From Lachnospiraceae bacterium (GTDB lineage: Bacteria; Bacillota; Clostridia; Lachnospirales; Lachnospiraceae): a stretch of DNA of 64,000 nt. The stretch's first letter is position 1; each line of letters opens with the position of its first letter. A program made the translations under genes and the position numbers. This document shows positions 17,251 through 59,369 of the stretch, piece by piece. Where the stretch lies: positions 1 through 64,000 of the forward strand of contig JAGBCB010000012.1 in NCBI GenBank assembly GCA_017938145.1, written 5' to 3'. Below the pieces are notes generated by a model. It was not told the DNA's origin and made no database searches. It saw only the letters and a list, made by a program, of their open reading frames with translations.

Positions 17251-17280
17251 TTATTTCATGTTACTGTCCACGCAACATAA

Positions 17281-17325
17281 AAAAGCCGATAAATTGTGTA
17301 CTTGTACGCAGATTTATCGGCTTTT
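17281..17325. terminator. Hairpin terminator with extended symmetric flanks
   Basis: AAAAGCCGATAAAT (17281-17294) pairs with its complement at 17312-17325, followed by T tracts both ways. Flanking sequence also pairs (TGTCCACGCAACAT with ATGTTGTGGACA), extending the imperfect stem outward to about 17257-17342. No gene ends here, so it may insulate the GntR operon promoter from the PHP gene. Confidence 0.7.
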
Positions 17326-17353
17326 TATATGTTGTGGACATAACTGTCGCCGT

Positions 17354-18344: not shown

Positions 18345-18378
18345 ACTCCGCGTTCACACCATATTCAGACAACACTTG

Positions 18379-18675
18379 TAAAAGTTGAACCCTTATGAGA
18401 AGGATTAATTTCTTTGGCTTATCTTCAACATAAAAAGGGGCTGGAGCAAGATTCGATTTTTCTTCCTTTGCATATCCCGGTGTCCGACCTCTCAGCGGAC
18501 TGATGTTTGAATCTGGCAGACATGCAAATCTATTTTGCAATGTTTGACAGAGGCAAACAGCGGTCCGAGGAGGCAGGCGAACACGGATATCAAAGGAAGA
18601 AAAATCCTCTTGCCCAGCCCCTTATACTGTTAAAATAAATCGAAGAAATTACTCCTTCTCAGGCTTTTCTACTTC
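18379..18675. repeat. ~300-bp quasi-palindrome containing the mirrored yajC 3' end
   Basis: The sequence from 18379 rightwards matches the complement of the sequence from 18675 leftwards. The clear outer pair is AAGGGGCTGG (from 18435) with CCAGCCCCTT (to 18622). GATTTTTCTTCCTTTG and CGGTGTCCG blocks pair further in. The match continues outward into yajC: its last codons (TGAGAAGGAGTAA) have the mirror copy TGAGAAGGATTAA at about 18396-18408. The inner part also pairs (TGTTTG/CAAACA, ACATGCAAA/TTTGCAATGT), so the region would fold into one long rod. It also serves as the only terminator between the convergent genes. Confidence 0.8.
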
Positions 18676-18975
18676 CACAATTGCTGTCTTCTTCATTGGA
18701 ATACGGCAATTCTTGTTGTTACCGAATTCAACGATAACTACGTTTTCGTCTACGTTATCGATTACTACGCCGTAGAAACCGCTGGTAGTAAGTACACTGT
18801 CACCGATTTCGATGGAGTTTACCAGTTCGTCCTGCTTCTTCTGCTGCTTCTTCTGCGGACGGTAAATCATGAAGTAAATAAGTAAACCGAAGAATACAAT
18901 GTAAATGAGCATGCCACCCCACATACCGCCGGTAGGTGCTGCCTCTGCTACTGTTAAAACTGCTGTAAAATTCAT
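18649..18975 (-). CDS. yajC: Preprotein translocase accessory subunit YajC
   Basis: A 108-residue single-pass membrane protein that associates with SecDF/YidC at the Sec translocon. The N-terminal helix (~20-40) is followed by the conserved MIYRPQKKQQKK stretch and a small beta-rich cytoplasmic domain (GDSVLTTSGFYG...). The acidic/basic tail ends PEKPEKE-like. It lies 20 nt downstream of tgt, a common clostridial arrangement. The last codons are duplicated in mirror image across the downstream palindrome. Confidence 0.93.
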   Translation of the reverse strand: MNFTAVLTVAEAAPTGGMWGGMLIYIVFFGLLIYFMIYRPQKKQQKKQDELVNSIEIGDSVLTTSGFYGVVIDNVDENVVIVEFGNNKNCRIPMKKTAIVEVEKPEKE

Positions 18976-29717: not shown

Positions 29718-29743
29718 AACAGGGGATGAGAGAATCGAACTCC
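29718..29743. repeat. Right attachment site, within tRNA-Trp
   Basis: The 26-bp repeat identical to 20783-20808. Here it forms the actual 3' part of the intact tRNA gene, so insertion left the tRNA functional. Confidence 0.88.
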
Positions 29744-29790
29744 CGCTAAAGGTTTTGGAGACCCTTGTCATACCATTTGACCAATCCCCT
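29720..29790 (-). tRNA. tRNA-Trp (anticodon CCA)
   Basis: The cloverleaf is clear on the minus strand. The acceptor AGGGGAT pairs with ATCCCCT. The D-arm stem is GTCA/TGAC, the anticodon stem AGGGT/ACCTT encloses CTCCAAA with CCA, and the T-arm is GGGAG-TTCGATT-CTCTC. The discriminator is G, as expected for bacterial tRNA-Trp. CCA is not encoded. Its 3' end is the integration site of the element. Confidence 0.95.
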
Positions 29791-39276: not shown

Positions 39277-39439
39277 AGTTCCTCAATTCTCCCTTAGGGG
39301 CACTCTTTTTCTAATTGTTGGGTTTCAGGGCAAACTACACCCTTATATCTAGTATATCACACAAATCAAGAATAGAAAAGAGATATGGCAGAGATATGGC
39401 AAAAAAATGTTACTGTTTGCCCAAATTATACCAAAACAT

Positions 39440-39885
39440 GCCACGAAGTCATGTGGCATCTTCTTCCCCATGCATTTTTCCTCAGACTCTTAAGCTTTGC
39501 AGGAGGGTTAGCCAATCAATCTGTCACAAAGTTGATTAATGAATGCTGCCGGTGTTTTACTATAACTCCGTGGCGGGAAATAAAAGTTTGTACAAAGTTA
39601 GTTGCCAATTAAAGTGCGAAGCACTTTTAAAAAAGGGGAGTATGGGCGTCTCTGGAAAACAAGTTTTCCAAGAGCGCCTTCACTCCCCTTTTGTTAAAGC
39701 GTCCATAGGACGCTCTGGCAACTAACTTCAGTGAATACTTGTTCCATCCCGCCCCGTCAAACAAATAGATAAAACACCGGCAGCATCCATACCTATTGTG
39801 ACAAGTTTCTTGGAACCCTCCGCAAAGCTACGAATGTCTGAATCAAAATGCATGTTCCAAATAAAAAACCACATGACTTCTGACA
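39440..39885. repeat. ~445-bp imperfect palindrome
   Basis: The left arm from 39445 (GAAGTCATGTGG) matches the complement of the right arm ending at 39880. Further matched blocks are ATGCATTTT, AGCTTTGC-GGAGGGTT, TGTCACAA, ATGCTGCCGGTGTTTTA, GGCGGGA and GTTAGTTGCCA. The centre is a strong hairpin at about 39636-39695 (GGGGAGT...ACTCCCC around GGAAAAC/GTTTTCC). The arms are diverged, with insertions. It could be two inverted copies of one element or a long structured RNA. Confidence 0.8.
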
Positions 39886-39886
39886 T
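39728..39886 (-). pseudogene. Possible gene remnant in the right arm of the palindrome
   Basis: An open frame of 52 codons fills almost exactly the right arm (includes SFAEGSKKLVTIGMDAAGV). The composition looks protein-like, but there is no ribosome binding site. The mirrored left copy is broken by stops and frame changes. It may be a fragment of a mobile-element protein or a chance frame. Confidence 0.3.
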
Positions 39887-39926
39887 TTTTCTGGCGGTCC
39901 GTTAAGCAAACATCACTCCCTCCTCC

Positions 39927-40091: not shown

Positions 40092-41363
40092 TTACGCTTC
40101 ATCAATTGCCTTACCAATATCGTTTCTCTTATACTTGTTGGCAAAGTCAATCCATTCCGTTGCTTTATAAGCATTTGCTCTTGCATCCTTTAAGTCGGAA
40201 CCTAAAGCAGTAACGCCAAGAACACGTCCGCCGTTGGTTACAATTTTGCCATCATTGAACTTGGTTCCGGCATGGAATACATAGTAGCCGTCCTTATCCT
40301 TGAAATTCTCGAAACCGGTAATTTCAAAGCCCTTGTCGTACTTCTCCGGATAACCGTCGGAAGCAAGAACCACGCAAACTGCTGCATTGTCTGCAAAGTC
40401 AAGTTCGATTTGGTCAAGTGTGCCGTCTACACAGGCTTCGAACACTTCCACAATATCGTTCTTCATACGAGGAAGCACTACCTGGGTTTCCGGGTCGCCG
40501 AAGCGGGCATTGTACTCTAATACACGAGGGCCGTTTGGTGTAAGCATAAGACCGAAGAAAATAATACCCTTGAACTCTCTGCCTTCTGCTGCCATAGCAT
40601 CCACAGTTGCCTGATAAATATACTTCTTACAGAACTCATCTACTTCTGCTGTATAGAATGGGCTTGGGGAGAAGGTTCCCATACCGCCGGTATTTAAGCC
40701 CTGGTCACCGTCTTTAGCGCGCTTGTGATCCTGGGCACTGGTCATGATGCGGATGGTCTTACCGTCTACAAAAGATAATACGGAAACTTCACGGCCGGTC
40801 ATAAATTCTTCGATAACAATGCGGTCACCTGCAGAGCCAAACTGCTTGTCGGTCATCAGGGACTTAACACCGTCTTTTGCTTCTTCTAAGGTGTTGCAGA
40901 TAAGAACACCCTTACCAAGTGCCAGACCGTCTGCCTTTAATACGATAGGAAGCTTTGCGGTTTCTAAATAAGCCAGTGCTGCTTCCGAAGAATTGAATAC
41001 TTCGTAAGCTGCAGTTGGAATGTTGTACTTCTTCATGAGGTCCTTGGAGAAAGCCTTAGAACCCTCTAAAATAGCGGCATTCTTTCTTGGTCCGAATACC
41101 TTTAAGCCTCTTGCTTCGAATACGTCAACCACACCTGCTACCAGTGGATCGTCCATACCGATAACGGTTAAGTCAATCTGCTTTTCCTGCGCAAAATCAG
41201 CCAGTTTTTCTAATTCCATAGCACCGATGTTGACGCACTCCGCATATTCTGCGATACCTGCGTTGCCCGGTGCACAATAAATCTTTTCTACCTTTTTGCT
41301 CTGTGCAATTTTCCAGCAGATGGCATGCTCTCTGCCGCCGCTGCCGACTACTAAGATTTTCAT
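40092..41363 (-). CDS. purD: Phosphoribosylamine-glycine ligase
   Basis: Joins phosphoribosylamine and glycine with ATP in purine synthesis. The 423-residue ATP-grasp enzyme starts MKILVVGSGGREHA and contains the GSAGDRIVIEEF and EYNARFGDPETQ segments that bind ATP and metal. The start at 41363 follows AGGAGG; a longer frame to 41390 would overlap purN. It is the last gene of purM-purN-purD. Confidence 0.97.
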   Translation of the reverse strand: MKILVVGSGGREHAICWKIAQSKKVEKIYCAPGNAGIAEYAECVNIGAMELEKLADFAQEKQIDLTVIGMDDPLVAGVVDVFEARGLKVFGPRKNAAILEGSKAFSKDLMKKYNIPTAAYEVFNSSEAALAYLETAKLPIVLKADGLALGKGVLICNTLEEAKDGVKSLMTDKQFGSAGDRIVIEEFMTGREVSVLSFVDGKTIRIMTSAQDHKRAKDGDQGLNTGGMGTFSPSPFYTAEVDEFCKKYIYQATVDAMAAEGREFKGIIFFGLMLTPNGPRVLEYNARFGDPETQVVLPRMKNDIVEVFEACVDGTLDQIELDFADNAAVCVVLASDGYPEKYDKGFEITGFENFKDKDGYYVFHAGTKFNDGKIVTNGGRVLGVTALGSDLKDARANAYKATEWIDFANKYKRNDIGKAIDEA

Positions 41364-41377
41364 CGTAATCCTCCTAT

Positions 41378-42001
41378 TTATTGAATCCAAGCTTTTCCGT
41401 CTTCCATTACAACTCTGCCGTTCGCAATGGCATCAATGGCCTGCGGAAGAATCTCCCACTCTGCCTCTACCATAACGCGCTTCTGCAGAACCTCAGCGGT
41501 ATCACCCTGCTGTACATAAACTGCTTTCTGCAGTAAAATCGGACCGGTATCAGTGCCTTCATCCACAAAATGTACGGTAGCTCCGGTCACCTTGTTGCCG
41601 CGGGCAAGCACTGCCTCATGAACCTTAAGTCCGTAATATCCGGTACCGCAGAAGGACGGAATTAAGGACGGATGAATATTAATTAAACGGTTTCTGTATT
41701 CTGTAATGAGTGCCGGAGGAATGATCACTAAAAATCCTGCCAGAACCACTAAATCCGGATTGTATTTTTTTACGCCGGCAAGGAGTGCCTCGTTAAAAAA
41801 TTGCCTGTTTTCAAACTGCTTTGGGGAAATGCACTCTGCAGGAATTCCTGCATTTTTGGCACGCTCCAGGGCATAGGCGTTTGCGTTGTTACTGATGACT
41901 GCCGCAATTTTTGTATTAGTGACAGTACCATCTGCTATTTTATCCATGATAGCCTGGAGGTTTGTTCCGCCACCGCTGACTAAAACAACAATATTTAGCA
42001 T
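41378..42001 (-). CDS. purN: Phosphoribosylglycinamide formyltransferase
   Basis: Transfers formyl from 10-formyl-THF to GAR. The 207-residue protein has the N-terminal [13 protein letters not shown] phosphate loop, the catalytic [10 protein letters not shown] (Asn/His) and the Asp-containing [11 protein letters not shown]. It overlaps purM by 7 nt and is followed by purD after 14 nt. Confidence 0.97.
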
Positions 42002-43220: not shown

Positions 43221-43391
43221 TTATACTTCCAATTCAAATAATGCGACAGAACGCCCATTGTCGTAATCAATGATATCCACTATTTTTAAACCGGCGTTTA
43301 AATATATTTTTCTTACCACCTTCTCATCCAGTCCTGTGTCAAGACGTACATATATATATCTTTCTCCGACATCATGACATATTTTTGCACA
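43221..43391 (-). pseudogene. C-terminal remnant of an acetyltransferase-like protein
   Basis: The open frame encodes RLDTGLDEKVVRKIYLNAG and a DYDNGRSVALFELEV ending, which looks like the tail of a GNAT-type protein. The apparent start (43424) lies inside a terminator hairpin, so no complete gene exists. The family assignment is tentative. Confidence 0.5.
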
Positions 43392-43437
43392 AAAGGAATG
43401 CCGTGAGTTTCCATAATATCTCATGGCATTCCTTTTA
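43391..43437 (-). terminator. Terminator of the antitoxin/JAMM operon
   Basis: AAAAGGAATGCCGTGAG (43391-43407) pairs with CTCATGGCATTCCTTTT (43420-43437), placed 1 nt after the 51-residue gene. Confidence 0.8.
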
Positions 43438-43438
43438 T

Positions 43439-43594
43439 TTACGCTTTCTCCAGCCTTTCCACTTGTTTTTTCTTCTTCTCTAATTCTTTCTGTCGCTCTT
43501 CCTTAATTTTTTCACGAATTTGCTCATGGGTCAGTTTAAGCAGTTCTTCCGGAATATCAAATCGGTCCTCTTGTACATATACAATTCTTTCCAT
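43439..43594 (-). CDS. Small charged protein, last gene of the antitoxin/JAMM operon
   Basis: 51 residues starting MERIVYVQEDRFDIPEELL and continuing as a highly charged Lys/Glu helix to the end. GGGAGGTGC lies upstream of the ATG, overlapping the end of the preceding frame. No family is recognised. Its good site and tight packing argue that it is real. It could be a partner of the JAMM protein. Confidence 0.65.
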   Translation of the reverse strand: MERIVYVQEDRFDIPEELLKLTHEQIREKIKEERQKELEKKKKQVERLEKA

Positions 43595-43595
43595 T

Positions 43596-44171
43596 CTACC
43601 GCACCTCCCAAAATTCAATACTATAAGCTTCTGACAGTTCCTTTATCGCTTCAAGCTGTGCTAAAAATTCATCTTGAAACTGCACATAATAATCTGCTAC
43701 ATATAGATTATACATCATTTTCGAAATAATTTCATCAGATTTATATCAAAAAATTTTGCCATCATGGCATAAAACCACACCCAGCATATAATTATGGTCT
43801 TTTGCAGAATTAAAATCTGCAATACTTGGCGGCATACTACAAGGATGTGTATGTACCGCAATAATTTTATTTCCACCTTTTATTGCTTTACTAATCGATT
43901 CAGAATAAAGAATTTGTTCTTCCTCTGACGAATCAATTTCCTTTGCTATTATTTTACCCGTATCAGCATCAAGCCAATACATATCTTCATACAAAGTTCC
44001 AGACCTATGTAATAACATTTCTTTTGCTTTGCTATAAATAATTCTGTTTACATCTTTATTATCGGTTATTTTATCAAATTTATTACGATATTCCCCACTC
44101 GAAATATATGTACCATTAACCAATGTAGATTTATTTCTTCCATATCTTTGAAGTTCAAGATTTTCACTCAT
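43596..44171 (-). pseudogene. JAMM/JAB-domain metalloprotease gene with in-frame UGA
   Basis: The first 141 codons encode a JAB-like protein with the JAMM zinc motif HTHP-x6-S-x-x-D (His107, His109, Ser116, Asp119). A TGA follows at 43746-43748. The same frame then stays open for another ~49 codons (YKSDEIISKMMYNLYVADYY...), reading like the natural end of the protein and finishing at 43596. The downstream part has no ribosome binding site. So the gene is either broken by a nonsense mutation, misread at one base, or read through. It follows the antitoxin gene by 10 nt. Substrates of such proteases include ubiquitin-like or C-terminal tails; none is evident here. Confidence 0.65.
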
Positions 44172-44181
44172 GCGTTACATA

Positions 44182-44427
44182 TCACCCCTTCTTTAATTCC
44201 GCATCTAAGTTTTCTTGATACTTTATCAATCTTTGCAAACAACGTAGCATTACCTCATCAGCCACAAAACCTTCCTCCTCGGCCTTACCAAATTCCAGAA
44301 CCAAATATTTTGGCATATTATTCTTCATAATCACAGCCGAACCCTTTTCATCCACCAATCTTGCCACCTTGGAAAAATTCTGATTTGCTTCTGTCATGGA
44401 AACCATTGTACTTGTGTCAATAATCAT
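44182..44427 (-). CDS. Phd/YefM-like antitoxin
   Basis: 81 residues. The N-terminal half (MVSMTEANQNFSKVARLVDEKG...AVIMKNNMPKYLVL) is the Phd/YefM fold that binds operator DNA; the C-terminal half should hold a toxin. Start 44427 follows TAGGAGGTG. The expected toxin (Doc, RelE/YoeB) is not next to it; instead come the JAMM-domain gene and a small charged protein. A consensus promoter (44452-44480) with ATGCAT palindrome suggests autoregulation. Confidence 0.8.
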   Translation of the reverse strand: MIIDTSTMVSMTEANQNFSKVARLVDEKGSAVIMKNNMPKYLVLEFGKAEEEGFVADEVMLRCLQRLIKYQENLDAELKKG

Positions 44428-44451
44428 AATGCACCTCCTAGTCATATATGC

Positions 44452-44480
44452 ATTATACATAGTTTCTAGGATAAATTCAA
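44452..44480 (-). promoter_or_regulatory. Sigma-A promoter of the antitoxin/JAMM operon
   Basis: TTGAAT (44475-44480) and TATAAT (44452-44457) with a 17-nt spacer. The self-complementary ATATATGCAT region just downstream is a candidate operator. Confidence 0.75.
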
Positions 44481-44493
44481 CCTATTTTTCATT

Positions 44494-44840
44494 CTTACGA
44501 AGTCAGTGTGAGCATATTCAAGTGGGCAAGCGAAGAACTCCACATCGCAGAACTGGTGCCTCACAATTTTAAAAAAGGCTTGTACAGGATATTTTAACTA
44601 TATAGTATCGGTGTCCGCCTGACTCCTACGACAATATCCGCTTCCGCCGGACAAAATGAAAAAGAAATTCATTTCGTTCGTCGAAAACGGACATTATCGT
44701 TTGAGATGTCGGACACGTCGATACAATATAGTTAAAACATTTTTTGTACAAGCCTTTTTTAACAACTCTCGCCGCACCAGTTCTGCGATAAAGTTATTCT
44801 TCGCCAACACATTCCAGCTTACTCACACTAACCTCGTAAG
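44494..44840. repeat. ~350-bp quasi-palindrome containing the mirrored ssb 3' end
   Basis: CTTACGAAGTCAGTGTGAG (44494-44512) mirrors CTTACGAGGTTAGTGTGAG of the ssb-like gene (complement of 44822-44840). Further mirrored blocks are GCGAAGAA, ATCGCAGAACTGGTGC, AAAAAAGGCTTGTACA, TTTTAACTATAT and GTGTCCG. The inner part pairs as AATGAA/TTCATT. The arms are about 170 nt each and diverged. The arms include the ssb stop codon and its last ~15 codons. A single rod-like RNA would form from transcription of either strand. Confidence 0.85.
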
Positions 44841-45426
44841 CCGTTCTCTTCTCAAATTCTGTCTCAGAAATCTTCTTCTGATATTCCCTGCTCTGGATTC
44901 TGCCCCAAATCTGGATGTGTTCACCCACCTGAAATCCCTCTGCAAAGCGGGCATTTCTACCCCAGCAGATGCATGGAATATAGTCGGATTTTCCGTACGG
45001 ACGGTTTACTGCTAAAAGCACGTCTGCAATTTCCCGGCCCAGCGGAGTTTTTCTATAAATAGGAGGCTTACAGACAAATCCGTCAAGGAAAATATAATTC
45101 GGACGCACCTCATCTGCGGATTCCTCCAAAATTTCAATTTCTCTTGCAAATACGGAAAGCACCAGACGGTTTCTGCTTTCCTCATGGCGATTATAAGAGC
45201 GGAACTGACCGCTAATCACCGCATGCATTCCGGTGTAGTCTCTCTTCACATCCACCAGACGCTCCGATACCATAATCGGAATAATGTCATTGGATTCACT
45301 TAAGCGTCCAACCGAAATATCCATTACGTAAAATCCCTCACCAAACACATCATGGCTGAAGGTAAATCCCCCCATAATTTCTCCGGCGATTGTCACCTGG
45401 TTATTATCAAATACCTTATCTGTCAT
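44794..45426 (-). CDS. Single-stranded DNA-binding protein-like, two OB folds
   Basis: 210 residues with two OB-fold-like halves (~5-100 and ~108-205). Each shows SSB-type strands (QVTIAGEIMGGFTFSHD; NYIFLDGFVCKPPIYRKTPLG...ADVLLAVNRPYGKSDYIPC). The second half is the closer match to SSB. The usual acidic DxxPF tail for partner binding is missing. It may act in DNA repair, natural competence or plasmid biology. GGGAGTA precedes the ATG. Its 3' end is mirrored downstream. Confidence 0.75.
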   Translation of the reverse strand: MTDKVFDNNQVTIAGEIMGGFTFSHDVFGEGFYVMDISVGRLSESNDIIPIMVSERLVDVKRDYTGMHAVISGQFRSYNRHEESRNRLVLSVFAREIEILEESADEVRPNYIFLDGFVCKPPIYRKTPLGREIADVLLAVNRPYGKSDYIPCICWGRNARFAEGFQVGEHIQIWGRIQSREYQKKISETEFEKRTAYEVSVSKLECVGEE

Positions 45427-56648: not shown

Positions 56649-59369
56649 ATGAAACCAACTCTCAGAAAAGGCGCCGTACTGTTGGCGTCTGCTATGGTGA
56701 TTTCTTCCGCTGCACCGGCCACCGGCTATGTTTATGCGGCAAAGAACTTCACCTATGCTTATCAGACCGGTGGTGAAGTAAGCAAGCTCTCCCTTGAGAA
56801 GGGGGATGTGGTTGACTTAAGATTCCTTGGTGTCAGCGACTACAGAAATTACTCTCTCACCTGGACAAGTTCCAATCCACAGGTTGCAACCGTTGATAAA
56901 AGCGGCGTGGTTACCGCAAAGGAAAACGGTACTGCTGTCATCACTCTTTTAGTAGGTGACGGTAATGCATACACCTCTGAAGGTGTTGTTGTAACCGTCG
57001 GCGAAATTCCAACCATGGAGGTAGCCCTTGGTACATCTAAGGACAATACCTTCAACAAGTACACACTGGAACTTGACAAAACCGTGGACTTAAACTTCTA
57101 CGGCGTTGTTAACTGGTCCACCTCCCTGTACTCCACCCGTTGGAGCACCTCTGATGCGAAGGTAGCTACCGTAAATAACTCCGGTGTGGTAACCCCTGTA
57201 GCACCGGGTACTGCCACTGTAACCATCGCAATCACAAACAGAACAACAGGCAAAGAGCTTAACGTTATCCCTGTGGAAATTACCGTTCCGGCTGCTGAGG
57301 TTTCCCAGGAATTTGTTGCACAGCAGATTAGTGACACCCAGGTTACCCTTACCTTTGCAAACAAGGACATCACTGCAGCGGAACTGGAAAAGGGTCTTTC
57401 CTTCCACTACTATGTGGGCGATGTAAAGATTGCATATCCAATCAAGGTTGCTTCCGTAAAGAACGGCGTGGCAACTCTGTCTGCTTACGTACCATTTACT
57501 GATGGCACCAGATACGGCTTTACTTACGGCGAATCTTCCGCAGAATTTGTGGCAAGCATCGGCGAAGTAGCAGGCATCCAGTACTCCTGGAGCTGTGACG
57601 GAGATGATTTCAAGGCCTATGCCGGCACTGACACTACCATCTCCTACAAGCTGTTAAATGCCCAGGGCGTAGATATTACCGCAAGTGCTATGGCACAGTC
57701 CGGCGCTTCCGTAATGTTCAGCCTTGTGAAGGATTCCGAAAACGGTGACTTCTGGATTTCCGACTCTACTGCAGGCAAGATTTTCTTTAACTCCGAAAAC
57801 GCAGTTGCCCAGGTAGAAATCGAATTCCTCACCGGAAAGTACGATCCGGAAACCTATGAACCGGTACCGGGTCCAAAGGCAGTTGCTACCATCATCAGCT
57901 CTAAGGCTCCTGCTTACGGCATTAACGTAGCAGAAGGCGGCGTAGCAACTATTGTTAAGGATTCCGCTGCTGCAGGCGCAGGCATCGACTGGAGCAAGGC
58001 TTCTTCCGTAATTGCCCTGGGCGATGACGAAAAGGCTTCCTTCCGTCTTGTAGCAAAGCTTACCGACACCAAGGGTGATTCCGTTTACACCGATACTATG
58101 GATGCAGAGAAGGGCTCTTTCTCCTTCGCTACTACCAATAACGCTATCCTGTATATCGCTGATGACGGAACTTTAATGACAAACAACACCGGTACTGTTA
58201 ACGTACTTGTATACTTTACTCCGGCAGGCTCTAACGCTTCTACTGTAGTTGCTGTACTTCCTGTAACCGTAAGAGCAGCAAGAGCAGTCAACAGCCTGAC
58301 CTTAGACAAGTCCTCCGATGTGATTTCCACAGAATCCGGCAACGGCTTCAACCAGACTACCTTCAAGGTAACCTTAAAGGACCAGTTAGGTGATTTAATC
58401 GCAGGCGACATTGAAATTACAAGTAACTTAAAGACCCTTCCAAACGGCGCAACCGCAGCTCCTGTAGTGAGTGCTGTAGAAGGTGCTGACGGCGAATATA
58501 CCTTCACCGTAACAGGCAGCGCAGAGAACCTTCCATCCGGTGCAACCGGCTACGCTTACACCTTTACCGTAAAGGCAGGTAATCTTACCAAGACCTTTAA
58601 CGTTACCGTAAAGAAGCCGGCAGTGGATAAGAGCGGCAACCTGGTAATCTCCGGCTACAAGATTGAGTTCTCCGGCGATGACGACTTAAAGACATCCGAT
58701 GCCAACGAAAAGATGGCAACAGCAACTCTTTACCTGTTAAGTAACGGCGTAAAGGCTCAGATTGCAGAGCTTTCTGTAAAGGATGCCTCCATCTCCAACA
58801 TGAAGGCTGGTAACTACTACTACACCGTAACCAAGGGCAGCACTGCAATTAACGCAGAAGCAGCAAGCGGTTCCGCAATTCAGATTCCGTTAACCGACAT
58901 TAAGGAAATCGAAGTTGGCGGCTCCACAATCAATGTGGTAGATAAGACAAAGAACGGTTCCGGCGTTTACACCGTAACCATCTATAAGGGTATCGGTACA
59001 ACAGCAGGTGCTACCGCATCCGCATTGACCCAGGTATCCAGAAGCACCTTAACCGTTAAGGACAGCCAGGCAGCCCTTTCCTACGCAGGCAAGAGCGCAA
59101 ATACCTTCGCTTCCGTAGACGGCGGTGTGGAAGAGCTTGTAAAGTCCAGCTTCAAGTTTAAGCTCGGTGACACTGTCTTAGATGACATTAGCGATTACAG
59201 CAACATCAAGTTAGTAGTAAATGCTAACAAGTTAGACGACAGCGGCATGTTAAAGCCGGGCAGCGTATGCTACGTGAAGTCCGTTGACTTCTATGTAGAA
59301 ACCGCAGAAGGCAGCAACACCTACGTGAAGTACACCGTAGCAGTTAATGATTACGTGGAAGTAAAGTAA
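56649..59369 (+). CDS. Large secreted BIG2 surface protein
   Basis: 906 residues with a signal peptide (~1-31; ends near VYAAK). Two BIG2 modules (~35-115 and ~120-215; SSNPQVATVDKSGVVTA, TSDAKVATVNNSGVVTP) precede a long beta-rich region shared with the genes at 59498 and 62755 (FHYYVGDVKIAYP, FTDGTRYGFTYGE, GPKAVATIISSKAPAYGI). There is no sortase signal, S-layer homology domain or membrane anchor. It is probably an S-layer-type or matrix protein. TAAGGAGG precedes the ATG. Its codons favour ACC/GCC/AAG, suggesting high expression. Confidence 0.85.
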   Translation: MKPTLRKGAVLLASAMVISSAAPATGYVYAAKNFTYAYQTGGEVSKLSLEKGDVVDLRFLGVSDYRNYSLTWTSSNPQVATVDKSGVVTAKENGTAVITLLVGDGNAYTSEGVVVTVGEIPTMEVALGTSKDNTFNKYTLELDKTVDLNFYGVVNWSTSLYSTRWSTSDAKVATVNNSGVVTPVAPGTATVTIAITNRTTGKELNVIPVEITVPAAEVSQEFVAQQISDTQVTLTFANKDITAAELEKGLSFHYYVGDVKIAYPIKVASVKNGVATLSAYVPFTDGTRYGFTYGESSAEFVASIGEVAGIQYSWSCDGDDFKAYAGTDTTISYKLLNAQGVDITASAMAQSGASVMFSLVKDSENGDFWISDSTAGKIFFNSENAVAQVEIEFLTGKYDPETYEPVPGPKAVATIISSKAPAYGINVAEGGVATIVKDSAAAGAGIDWSKASSVIALGDDEKASFRLVAKLTDTKGDSVYTDTMDAEKGSFSFATTNNAILYIADDGTLMTNNTGTVNVLVYFTPAGSNASTVVAVLPVTVRAARAVNSLTLDKSSDVISTESGNGFNQTTFKVTLKDQLGDLIAGDIEITSNLKTLPNGATAAPVVSAVEGADGEYTFTVTGSAENLPSGATGYAYTFTVKAGNLTKTFNVTVKKPAVDKSGNLVISGYKIEFSGDDDLKTSDANEKMATATLYLLSNGVKAQIAELSVKDASISNMKAGNYYYTVTKGSTAINAEAASGSAIQIPLTDIKEIEVGGSTINVVDKTKNGSGVYTVTIYKGIGTTAGATASALTQVSRSTLTVKDSQAALSYAGKSANTFASVDGGVEELVKSSFKFKLGDTVLDDISDYSNIKLVVNANKLDDSGMLKPGSVCYVKSVDFYVETAEGSNTYVKYTVAVNDYVEVK

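What the first reader, a model, noticed from the sequence alone, without database searches (positions are those of the whole stretch)
44494..44840. Mirror-image copy of the ssb gene end forming a 350-bp quasi-palindrome
The last ~15 codons and the downstream DNA of the ssb-like gene are repeated in inverted orientation across a central hairpin. Blocks such as ATCGCAGAACTGGTGC are identical in both arms. In the mirrored coding part (YEVSVS) GAG/GAA and GTT/GTC differ silently and the amino acids persist. Ordinary terminators do not include coding sequence. It could be a replication template-switch product, a long structured 3' UTR, or a protein-coding end used from either strand.
Basis: seen in the sequence. 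Interest (0 to 1): 0.7.

Follow-up and report, generated by a model that had tools for sequence, protein, structure and literature searches.

The report
Giant mirrored terminator hairpin after ssb
Behind the ssb gene lies a giant hairpin whose base is a backwards copy of the gene's own end, one of dozens of such mirror hairpins in one genus of gut bacteria, probably built by copying errors during replication and kept because the hairpin is useful as RNA.

Summary
The quasi-palindrome is real: 44494-44840, arms 134/160 identical outside gaps, RNA fold z -19 on the ssb strand. It has three layers: a mirrored ssb end, a terminator-like stem (AAAAAAGGCTTGTACA/TGTACAAGCCTTTTTT), and a ~127-nt palindromic core that is a dispersed repeat. 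A covariance model finds 13 core copies in this genome and copies in all 4 genomes of the genus, but only two weak hits in 149 other genomes of the family. Of 26 single-gene hairpins, 22 have one orientation. Of 41 adjoining gene ends, 19 have a reverse-complement copy above the 99% null (0.4 expected). Orthologous stems change on both sides, the ssb core is inverted between two species, and one mirrored gene end is an indel between species. G-U pairs are enriched on the gene-sense strand (73:28), so RNA-level selection is likely. The mirror shows no codon-position bias, so it does not act as protein. Verdict: a terminator-type 3'-end hairpin grown and homogenised by fold-back template switching, carrying a new genus-restricted repeat. 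Mechanism inferred, not tested in vivo. A new variant of known processes.

The parts
44494..44840 (-). whole quasi-palindromic hairpin, read in ssb sense
   Evidence: arm alignment and folds
44794..45426 (-). ssb-like gene (210 aa, stop codon included); its last 47 nt lie in the hairpin
   Evidence: ORF; PF00436 E 6.4e-17 over residues 110-205; coding_in_arm 47
44822..44840 (-). coding source of the outermost mirrored block
   Evidence: 17 of 19 identical to the reverse-complement block at 44494-44512
44494..44512 (+). non-coding mirror of the ssb codons
44544..44559 (.). 16-nt perfect stem block, partner 44774-44789
   Evidence: the repeat finder I3, 100%
44745..44760 (-). 5' half of the terminator-like stem (A-tract, then GGCTTGTACA)
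   Evidence: sequence; A-tract/GC pattern in 27 and GC/T-tract pattern in 25 of 43 gene-linked hairpins
44571..44586 (-). 3' half of the terminator-like stem (TGTACAAGCC, then T-tract)
   Evidence: sequence
44600..44726 (-). dispersed palindromic core, family A (motif strand)
   Evidence: model R1, 131.4 bits, E 7.1e-30; this copy is in the training set
44695..44714 (-). conserved half-motif GTCCGACATCTCAAACGATA
   Evidence: alignments A1/A2, place checked
44612..44633 (-). conserved partner motif TGTCGTAGGAGTCAGGCGGACA
   Evidence: alignments A1/A2, place checked
44661..44667 (.). loop of 7 nt
   Evidence: arm alignment
44452..44480 (-). promoter-like site just beyond the hairpin, ahead of the next small ORF
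   Evidence: TTGAAT-17-TATAAT, 10 of 12; 8 sites found in the region against 5.1 expected, so weak
18367..18689 (-). second family-A hairpin of the window, behind yajC; core 18472-18595; 41 nt of coding sequence in its arm

Best explanation
It is a giant terminator-type 3'-end RNA hairpin of ssb. (1) Inferred: it began as an ordinary intrinsic terminator. (2) Shown as anatomy: its centre holds a palindromic core of a repeat family dispersed through this one genus, in a preferred orientation just behind genes. (3) Inferred from comparison: during replication the nascent strand folds back on the hairpin and copies itself; this extends the stem outward into the end of the gene (the mirror), re-matches the arms after mutations, and occasionally flips the core in place. 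(4) Supported but not proven: the stem is kept by selection on the transcribed gene-sense RNA, because it terminates transcription or protects the 3' end.
For: Arms 134/160 and fold z -19. Core family: 13 copies here, copies in 4 of 4 genomes of the genus; in 149 other family genomes 2 hits, both below 30 bits. On 32 aligned cores 31 of 43 pairs have changes on both sides and 93.6% of cells pair; 0 of 500 shuffles as high; six slid structures reach at most 43.8% (alignment fitted to the structure). Orientation 22 of 26 single-gene hairpins, p=0.0005. Gene-end mirrors in 19 of 41, 0.4 expected. Independent survey: 18 of 672 gene ends in 857 kb of two congeners score >=26 against 3.6 expected, 12 score >=30 against 0.8; E. 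coli 0 of 168. A mirrored coding block of a purC-like gene is present in G001 and absent in G000. In 8 orthologous pairs, positions that changed and stayed paired changed on both sides 30 times and on one side 19 times. The ssb core is 73% identical between G000 and G001 when one is flipped, 56% in gene orientation. G-U against A-C in outer stems 73:28, p=8.6e-6; without the two ssb hairpins 55:25, p=0.001; per hairpin 15 against 3 with 8 ties, p=0.008 (counted, tested). Template switching that creates and mends RNA stems, arm homogenisation and spacer inversion: PMC8794818 (abstract and Discussion read) and PMC8604942 (abstract read).
Against: No expression or termination data. The consensus terminator scan does not call this hairpin (it allows loops of 3-8 nt only). 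11 of 43 gene-linked hairpins lack both terminator patterns. The mirrored indel is not polarised; it could be a loss in G000. Inside cores the G-U count runs the other way, 26 sense to 42 antisense. The G-U excess could partly come from strand-biased C-to-T mutation. A-C mismatches are one-sided (25 against 3), which neither model predicts. In one search, 76 aligned pairs are non-standard in one or both species and 287 pairs of the first species find no match in the second. C45b and C32 cores are 98-99% identical between species, so re-writing is not constant. Orthologous hairpins in pooled counts are not independent, and a few assigned ORFs are doubtful. How the core spreads is unexplained.
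Confidence: 0.6

Rival explanations
1. Selection alone: an RNA with a long stem is favoured, and ordinary point mutations plus compensatory changes lengthened the stem into the gene end without any copying event.
For: G-U bias on the sense strand; covariation.
Against: Mirror blocks of 15-56 nt at about 76-96% identity to coding sequence that is itself constrained; a whole mirrored block present or absent between two species; 11 double against 2 single changes in the outer stem at C24; core inversion.
Confidence: 0.14
2. A mobile palindromic element whose insertion itself makes the mirror: it enters at gene ends, and self-primed synthesis by its own or a borrowed enzyme copies the flanking gene end.
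For: The core is dispersed, found only in this genus so far, and oriented relative to genes; the mirror lies outside a conserved core in many copies.
Against: Mirrors also occur at hairpins with other cores. No cognate enzyme found: Y1 transposase PF01797 is absent from G002, which has 11 core copies. No clean empty site with the same outer stem was found; the two candidates look like core deletions (L162, L166). 22 of 41 gene ends have no mirror above the 99% null.
Confidence: 0.15
3. A plain miniature inverted-repeat or REP-like repeat with no special relation to the gene end; the mirror is chance similarity.
For: Dispersed stem-loop repeat families are common in bacteria (PMC2267715, abstract read).
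Against: Outer stems are locus-specific and match the adjacent gene; permutation null; survey with controls.
Confidence: 0.05
4. Assembly or amplification artefact in a metagenome-assembled genome.
For: One contig of G001 appears to be a fold-back of itself at its ends, so inverted artefacts do occur in these assemblies.
Against: The arms differ at 26 of 160 columns plus indels; the same structure stands at the same place in a second assembly, with different arms and conserved flanks.
Confidence: 0.02

Closest known systems
Template-switch mutations at quasi-palindromes (PMC8794818 abstract and Discussion; PMC8604942 abstract; PMC7202029 search listing only)
   Same: Reverse-complement copying within a hairpin, arm homogenisation, spacer inversion, multi-base changes.
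   Different: Here the copied stretch is the coding end of a gene beside a terminator-like hairpin, with recurrent cases across one genus.
Intrinsic (Rho-independent) terminators (general knowledge)
   Same: Behind the stop codon, GC-containing stem with A- and T-tracts, gene-sense RNA favoured.
   Different: Span 180-350 nt in 47 of 51 core-bearing copies; conserved palindromic core; arms reaching into coding sequence.
Dispersed stem-loop repeat families such as REP/REPIN (PMC3116915, search listing only) and the families of PMC2267715 (abstract)
   Same: Palindromic, mostly intergenic, dispersed, with species-level subfamilies.
   Different: Outer stems are made of the neighbouring gene; no Y1 (RAYT-type) transposase common to all four genomes.
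Coding palindromes of Nematomorpha mitochondria (PMC6649704, abstract read)
   Same: Long inverted repeats overlapping coding sequence.
   Different: There both arms are conserved coding sequence; here the mirror is non-coding.

Membership tests
Template-switch (fold-back) mutation product | Reverse-complement copy of adjacent sequence | tested here: met
Template-switch (fold-back) mutation product | Clustered changes copied from one arm to the other between relatives | tested here: inconclusive
   30 double against 19 single changes among kept pairs and one mirrored indel, but direction and single-event origin are not shown
Template-switch (fold-back) mutation product | Spacer inversion | tested here: met
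   one case, the ssb core in G000 against G001; an independent insertion in the other direction is not excluded
Intrinsic terminator | GC-containing stem followed by a T-tract downstream of a gene | tested here: inconclusive
   seen at ssb and in 25 of 43 by pattern; the consensus scan does not call it
Intrinsic terminator | Stops transcription | not testable with these tools
   no RNA data
REP/REPIN with RAYT transposase | Cognate Y1 (IS200-like) transposase in the genome | tested here: not met
   PF01797 found in 3 of 4 genomes of the genus but absent from G002 (97% complete), which has 11 core copies
Known Rfam RNA family | Match at gathering score | tested here: not met
   only 6S RNA and one tRNA in the window
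Coding palindrome | Both arms conserved as protein | tested here: not met
   no codon-position bias over 19 loci, p=0.44

The most novel reading that the evidence does not exclude
A new kind of mobile hairpin: a palindromic element that settles into the terminators of genes and captures the host gene's end in mirror image by snap-back synthesis at each site, so that every copy wears a stem made from its neighbour. Its stems then evolve together as RNA, and it can even rewrite the C-terminus of a convergent gene.
Probability: 0.17. Interest if true: 0.85.

Novelty: new variant of a known kind. Interest (0 to 1): 0.6.

Why it matters
How long RNA stems arise and stay paired is an old question; template switching has been proposed as an answer from reconstructed histories of RNA genes (PMC8794818). 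Here one bacterial genus offers dozens of natural cases, eight of them at the same locus in two species, where the copied template, the coding end of a gene, is known. That makes the rate, direction and selection of fold-back copying measurable. It also suggests that gene ends and terminators can be re-written together, and adds a new family of dispersed palindromes.

Tried and rejected
Loss of the hairpin nuclease SbcCD as the reason for long palindromes: SbcD is above cut-off in all four genomes of the genus; SbcC was not searched. RAYT/IS200 transposase as mover: absent from G002. Known RNA family: none at gathering score. Phage origin: 0 exact matches to the core pattern in viral contigs. 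Wider spread: an exact pattern in the genome-contig collection gave 12 contigs: 10 of one Lachnospiraceae MAG (RGIG8677; contig lengths equal those of G001), 1 of RGIG8977 (length equals a G003 contig) and 1 Actinocorallia, taken as chance; records of the window's own genome may be left out there. Two weak model hits in other genera (G099 29.7 bits, G220 27.9 bits) and a 29-nt match in G043 are taken as chance. Clean pre-insertion sites: none among the 33 orthologous gene ends fetched; L162 and L166 look like deletions of the core that keep the outer stem. A base motif TTTTGCGT in 3' arms (7 of 43, 0.08 expected) was noted but not resolved. A first arm alignment with loose gap costs overextended many arms and was replaced by stricter scoring.

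Hairpins as such are not unique to the genus: the scan found 40 in 857 kb of G000 and G002 and 9 in 400 kb of three other genera; it is the mirrored gene ends that differ, and even there the other genera show 6 of 307 against 2.7 expected at the lower threshold.

Literature: the listings of searches showed no report of terminators carrying mirrored gene ends; only listed titles and abstract starts were seen, and subscription papers and preprints are not held, so this is no proof of absence.

Rows dropped: of 59 distinct model matches at E<=0.01 (my count, one fold-back duplicate on G001:C8 removed), 51 entered the arm analyses. Left out: G001 C68 (cut by a contig end), C72:4-126, C54:399-463, C90 and C40, and G003 C81, C44 and C129:35009. 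Eight of the 51 have no adjoining gene by my ORF rule; the 2 rnpB loci were also left out, which leaves 41. Of the 19 mirrors, G3C83b rests on a doubtful ORF; one search used 19 loci with G3C83b replaced by G1C17. Some single-gene assignments are doubtful (G3C43, G3C83b). Several ORFs lie in or across hairpins and are doubtful (G000_C64 56365, G002_C12 75370, G002_C13 14923), and the hairpins at G000_C55:33877 and G002_C13:15195 each account for two gene ends.

Full report
What was claimed and what is there. It is there at exactly 44494-44840. The arms are 44494-44660 and 44668-44840, 134 of 160 aligned columns identical plus 20 gap columns; outside the central ~100 nt 99 of 115 ungapped columns are identical. 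As RNA it folds to -189.9 kcal/mol on the ssb strand (z -19.1) and -147.0 on the other (z -15.2), with 0 of 100 shuffles as good in each case. The perfect 16-nt block ATCGCAGAACTGGTGC pairs with 44774-44789. The outermost 19 nt mirror ssb codons with two third-position differences.

Gene names. ssb, yajC and BipA rest on Pfam. All other gene names here (purM, purN, purD, purC-like, asnS, leuS, hisC, pyruvate:ferredoxin oxidoreductase, glf, rnpB) are recalled from the look of the sequence and come from no call.

Anatomy. Read in the ssb sense, the hairpin starts 47 nt before the end of the gene. It passes the perfect block, then a terminator-like stem (A-tract, GGCTTGTACA; on the far side TGTACAAGCC, T-tract), then a core of 127 nt, and returns through the same layers to a non-coding mirror of the gene end. 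Just beyond lies a weak promoter-like site ahead of the next small ORF. In congener G002, ssb is followed 125 bp on by purM, with no hairpin of this kind and no extra ORFs between.

The core is a dispersed repeat. A DNA search of 195 related genomes found its centre at other loci of the genus. A covariance model from six copies found 13 distinct copies in this genome, among them a second in the window behind yajC (core 18472-18595), and in the other 149 of 150 family genomes only two hits, both below 30 bits. All four genomes of the genus have copies. On 32 aligned copies 93.6% of pair cells are standard pairs and 31 of 43 pairs show changes on both sides; none of 500 shuffles is as high and six slid structures reach at most 43.8% (the alignment was fitted to this structure). 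The copies sit behind genes: among 51 analysed, 26 have a gene pointing at them on one side only, 17 on both sides or beside rnpB, 8 on neither. In 22 of the 26 the core has one orientation relative to the gene (p=0.0005). ssb in G000 is one of the four exceptions.

The outer stems are made of the neighbouring gene. For 41 hairpins I aligned the last 120 nt of the gene with the reverse complement of the region beyond the core, using the regions of the other loci as a null. 19 of 41 exceed the 99% point of the null, against 0.4 expected. Examples: asnS 44 nt, the pyruvate:ferredoxin-oxidoreductase-like gene 56 nt, the purC-like gene 42 nt. At the locus beside rnpB the mirrored end is that of the RNA gene (seen in the sequences, not scored). 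A survey that did not start from the repeat agrees: in 857 kb of G000 and G002, 18 of 672 gene ends reach a mirror score of 26 (3.6 expected; 6 in the direct-orientation control) and 12 reach 30 (0.8 expected). In 400 kb of three other genera it was 6 and 1 of 307 (2.7 and 0.9 expected), in 200 kb of E. coli 0 of 168 (1.0 and 0.5 expected). ORFs were called by length only and a few are doubtful.

How it changes between species. Eight hairpins exist at the same place in two species. Over these pairs 543 stem pairs are unchanged, 30 changed on both sides, 19 on one side, 76 are non-standard in one or both species, and 287 pairs of the first species find no match in the second, 103 of them at ssb. 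The purC-like locus shows the mirrored coding block as an indel: present in G001, absent in G000, not polarised. At ssb the core is inverted: 73% identical when one is flipped, 56% as they lie; 73% is also about the level between unrelated copies, but each other's core is the nearest only for the G000 copy, not for the G001 copy. Two loci (C45b, C32) have cores 98-99% identical between the species, which suggests that re-writing is episodic. At two loci G000 keeps the outer stem but has lost all or half of the core (L162, L166). Other orthologous genes carry ordinary short terminators or hairpins with unrelated cores. At one locus in G000 the C-terminal codons of two convergent genes mirror each other, and the C-terminus of the 372-aa gene differs from its G001 ortholog there (ACAEVELNL against ECVEKELNN).

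RNA or DNA? If only DNA copying mattered, leftover mismatches should not favour one strand. In the outer stems of the 26 single-gene hairpins G-U pairs on the gene-sense strand outnumber A-C mismatches 73 to 28 (p=8.6e-6); without the two ssb hairpins 55 to 25 (p=0.001), and per hairpin 15 against 3 with 8 ties (p=0.008). In G000 and G001 ssb the bias follows the gene (11:3 and 14:2) although the cores point in opposite directions. This fits selection on the transcript. A strand-biased C-to-T mutation process could contribute, and the lopsided A-C class (25 against 3) is unexplained. Inside the cores the counts go the other way (26 to 42). The mirrored coding stretches show equal mismatch rates at the three codon positions, so the mirror is not kept as protein; their mismatches are also G-U rather than A-C by 36 to 14.

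Mechanism. The best account joins known parts. PMC8794818 (abstract and Discussion read) argues that template switching creates and mends RNA stems and notes rare complete loop inversions; PMC8604942 (abstract read) reports arm homogenisation and spacer inversion in yeast. Applied to a terminator hairpin, fold-back synthesis continuing past the hairpin base would copy the gene end. Selection for the RNA hairpin would keep the products. Shown here: the anatomy, the recurrence, the covariation, one inversion and one indel. Inferred: the polymerase events, the terminator function and the order of steps. Not explained: how cores spread. SbcD is present in all four genomes, and a Y1 transposase is not shared by all carriers.

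Naming. It works like a terminator plus a quasi-palindrome mutation hotspot. The core belongs to a repeat family that I did not find described, and not to REP/REPIN by the test made. Other core families occur in the same genus, including a 464-nt hairpin at 39431-39894 of the window, and mirrored gene ends occur with those too. So mirroring seems to belong to the genus's 3'-end hairpins rather than to one element.

Noticed in passing
window 39431-39894: 464-nt hairpin of another core family (GCGTCC...GGACGC with AAAGTGC blocks) between the end of ORF 40092-41390 (purD-like, recalled) and a 1265-aa protein ORF; similar hairpins at G000:C64:56207-56689 and 56779-57187 and G002:C12:6929, C12:42274 and C13:74683.
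   Followed up: partly
L143, L144, L172; G000:C55:143905-144081, C64:99912-99992: Further recurrent hairpin cores (CCCGCTC...GCTGACGGT and CTCACTAAG types, grouped by eye) behind genes of the same genus, sometimes at orthologs of genes that carry family A elsewhere.
   Followed up: partly
L096 (G000:C55:33877-34150): Two convergent genes whose C-terminal codons are reverse complements of each other; one C-terminus differs from its G001 ortholog there, as if overwritten by the neighbour's mirror.
   Followed up: partly
G001:C8 (265,006 bases): Both ends of the contig appear to be reverse complements of each other (matching places 640/264367 and 4048/260959), probably a fold-back assembly error.
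   Followed up: no
window 44794-45426: The SSB-like protein is 210 aa and Pfam's SSB model covers only residues 110-205; the N-terminal half has no match.
   Followed up: no
window 43221-44460: Three small minus-strand ORFs without Pfam match lie between the hairpin and purM and are absent between ssb and purM in G002; the first two look like an antitoxin-like and a JAB-like protein by eye only.
   Followed up: no
outer stems of single-gene family-A hairpins (51-copy set, L086-L137): Mismatches with A on the 5' side and C on the 3' side number 25, the reverse only 3; no explanation.
   Followed up: no
window 17260-17344; 579-761; 29720-29790: An 85-nt near-perfect hairpin, a 6S RNA gene on the minus strand and a tRNA gene.
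   Followed up: no
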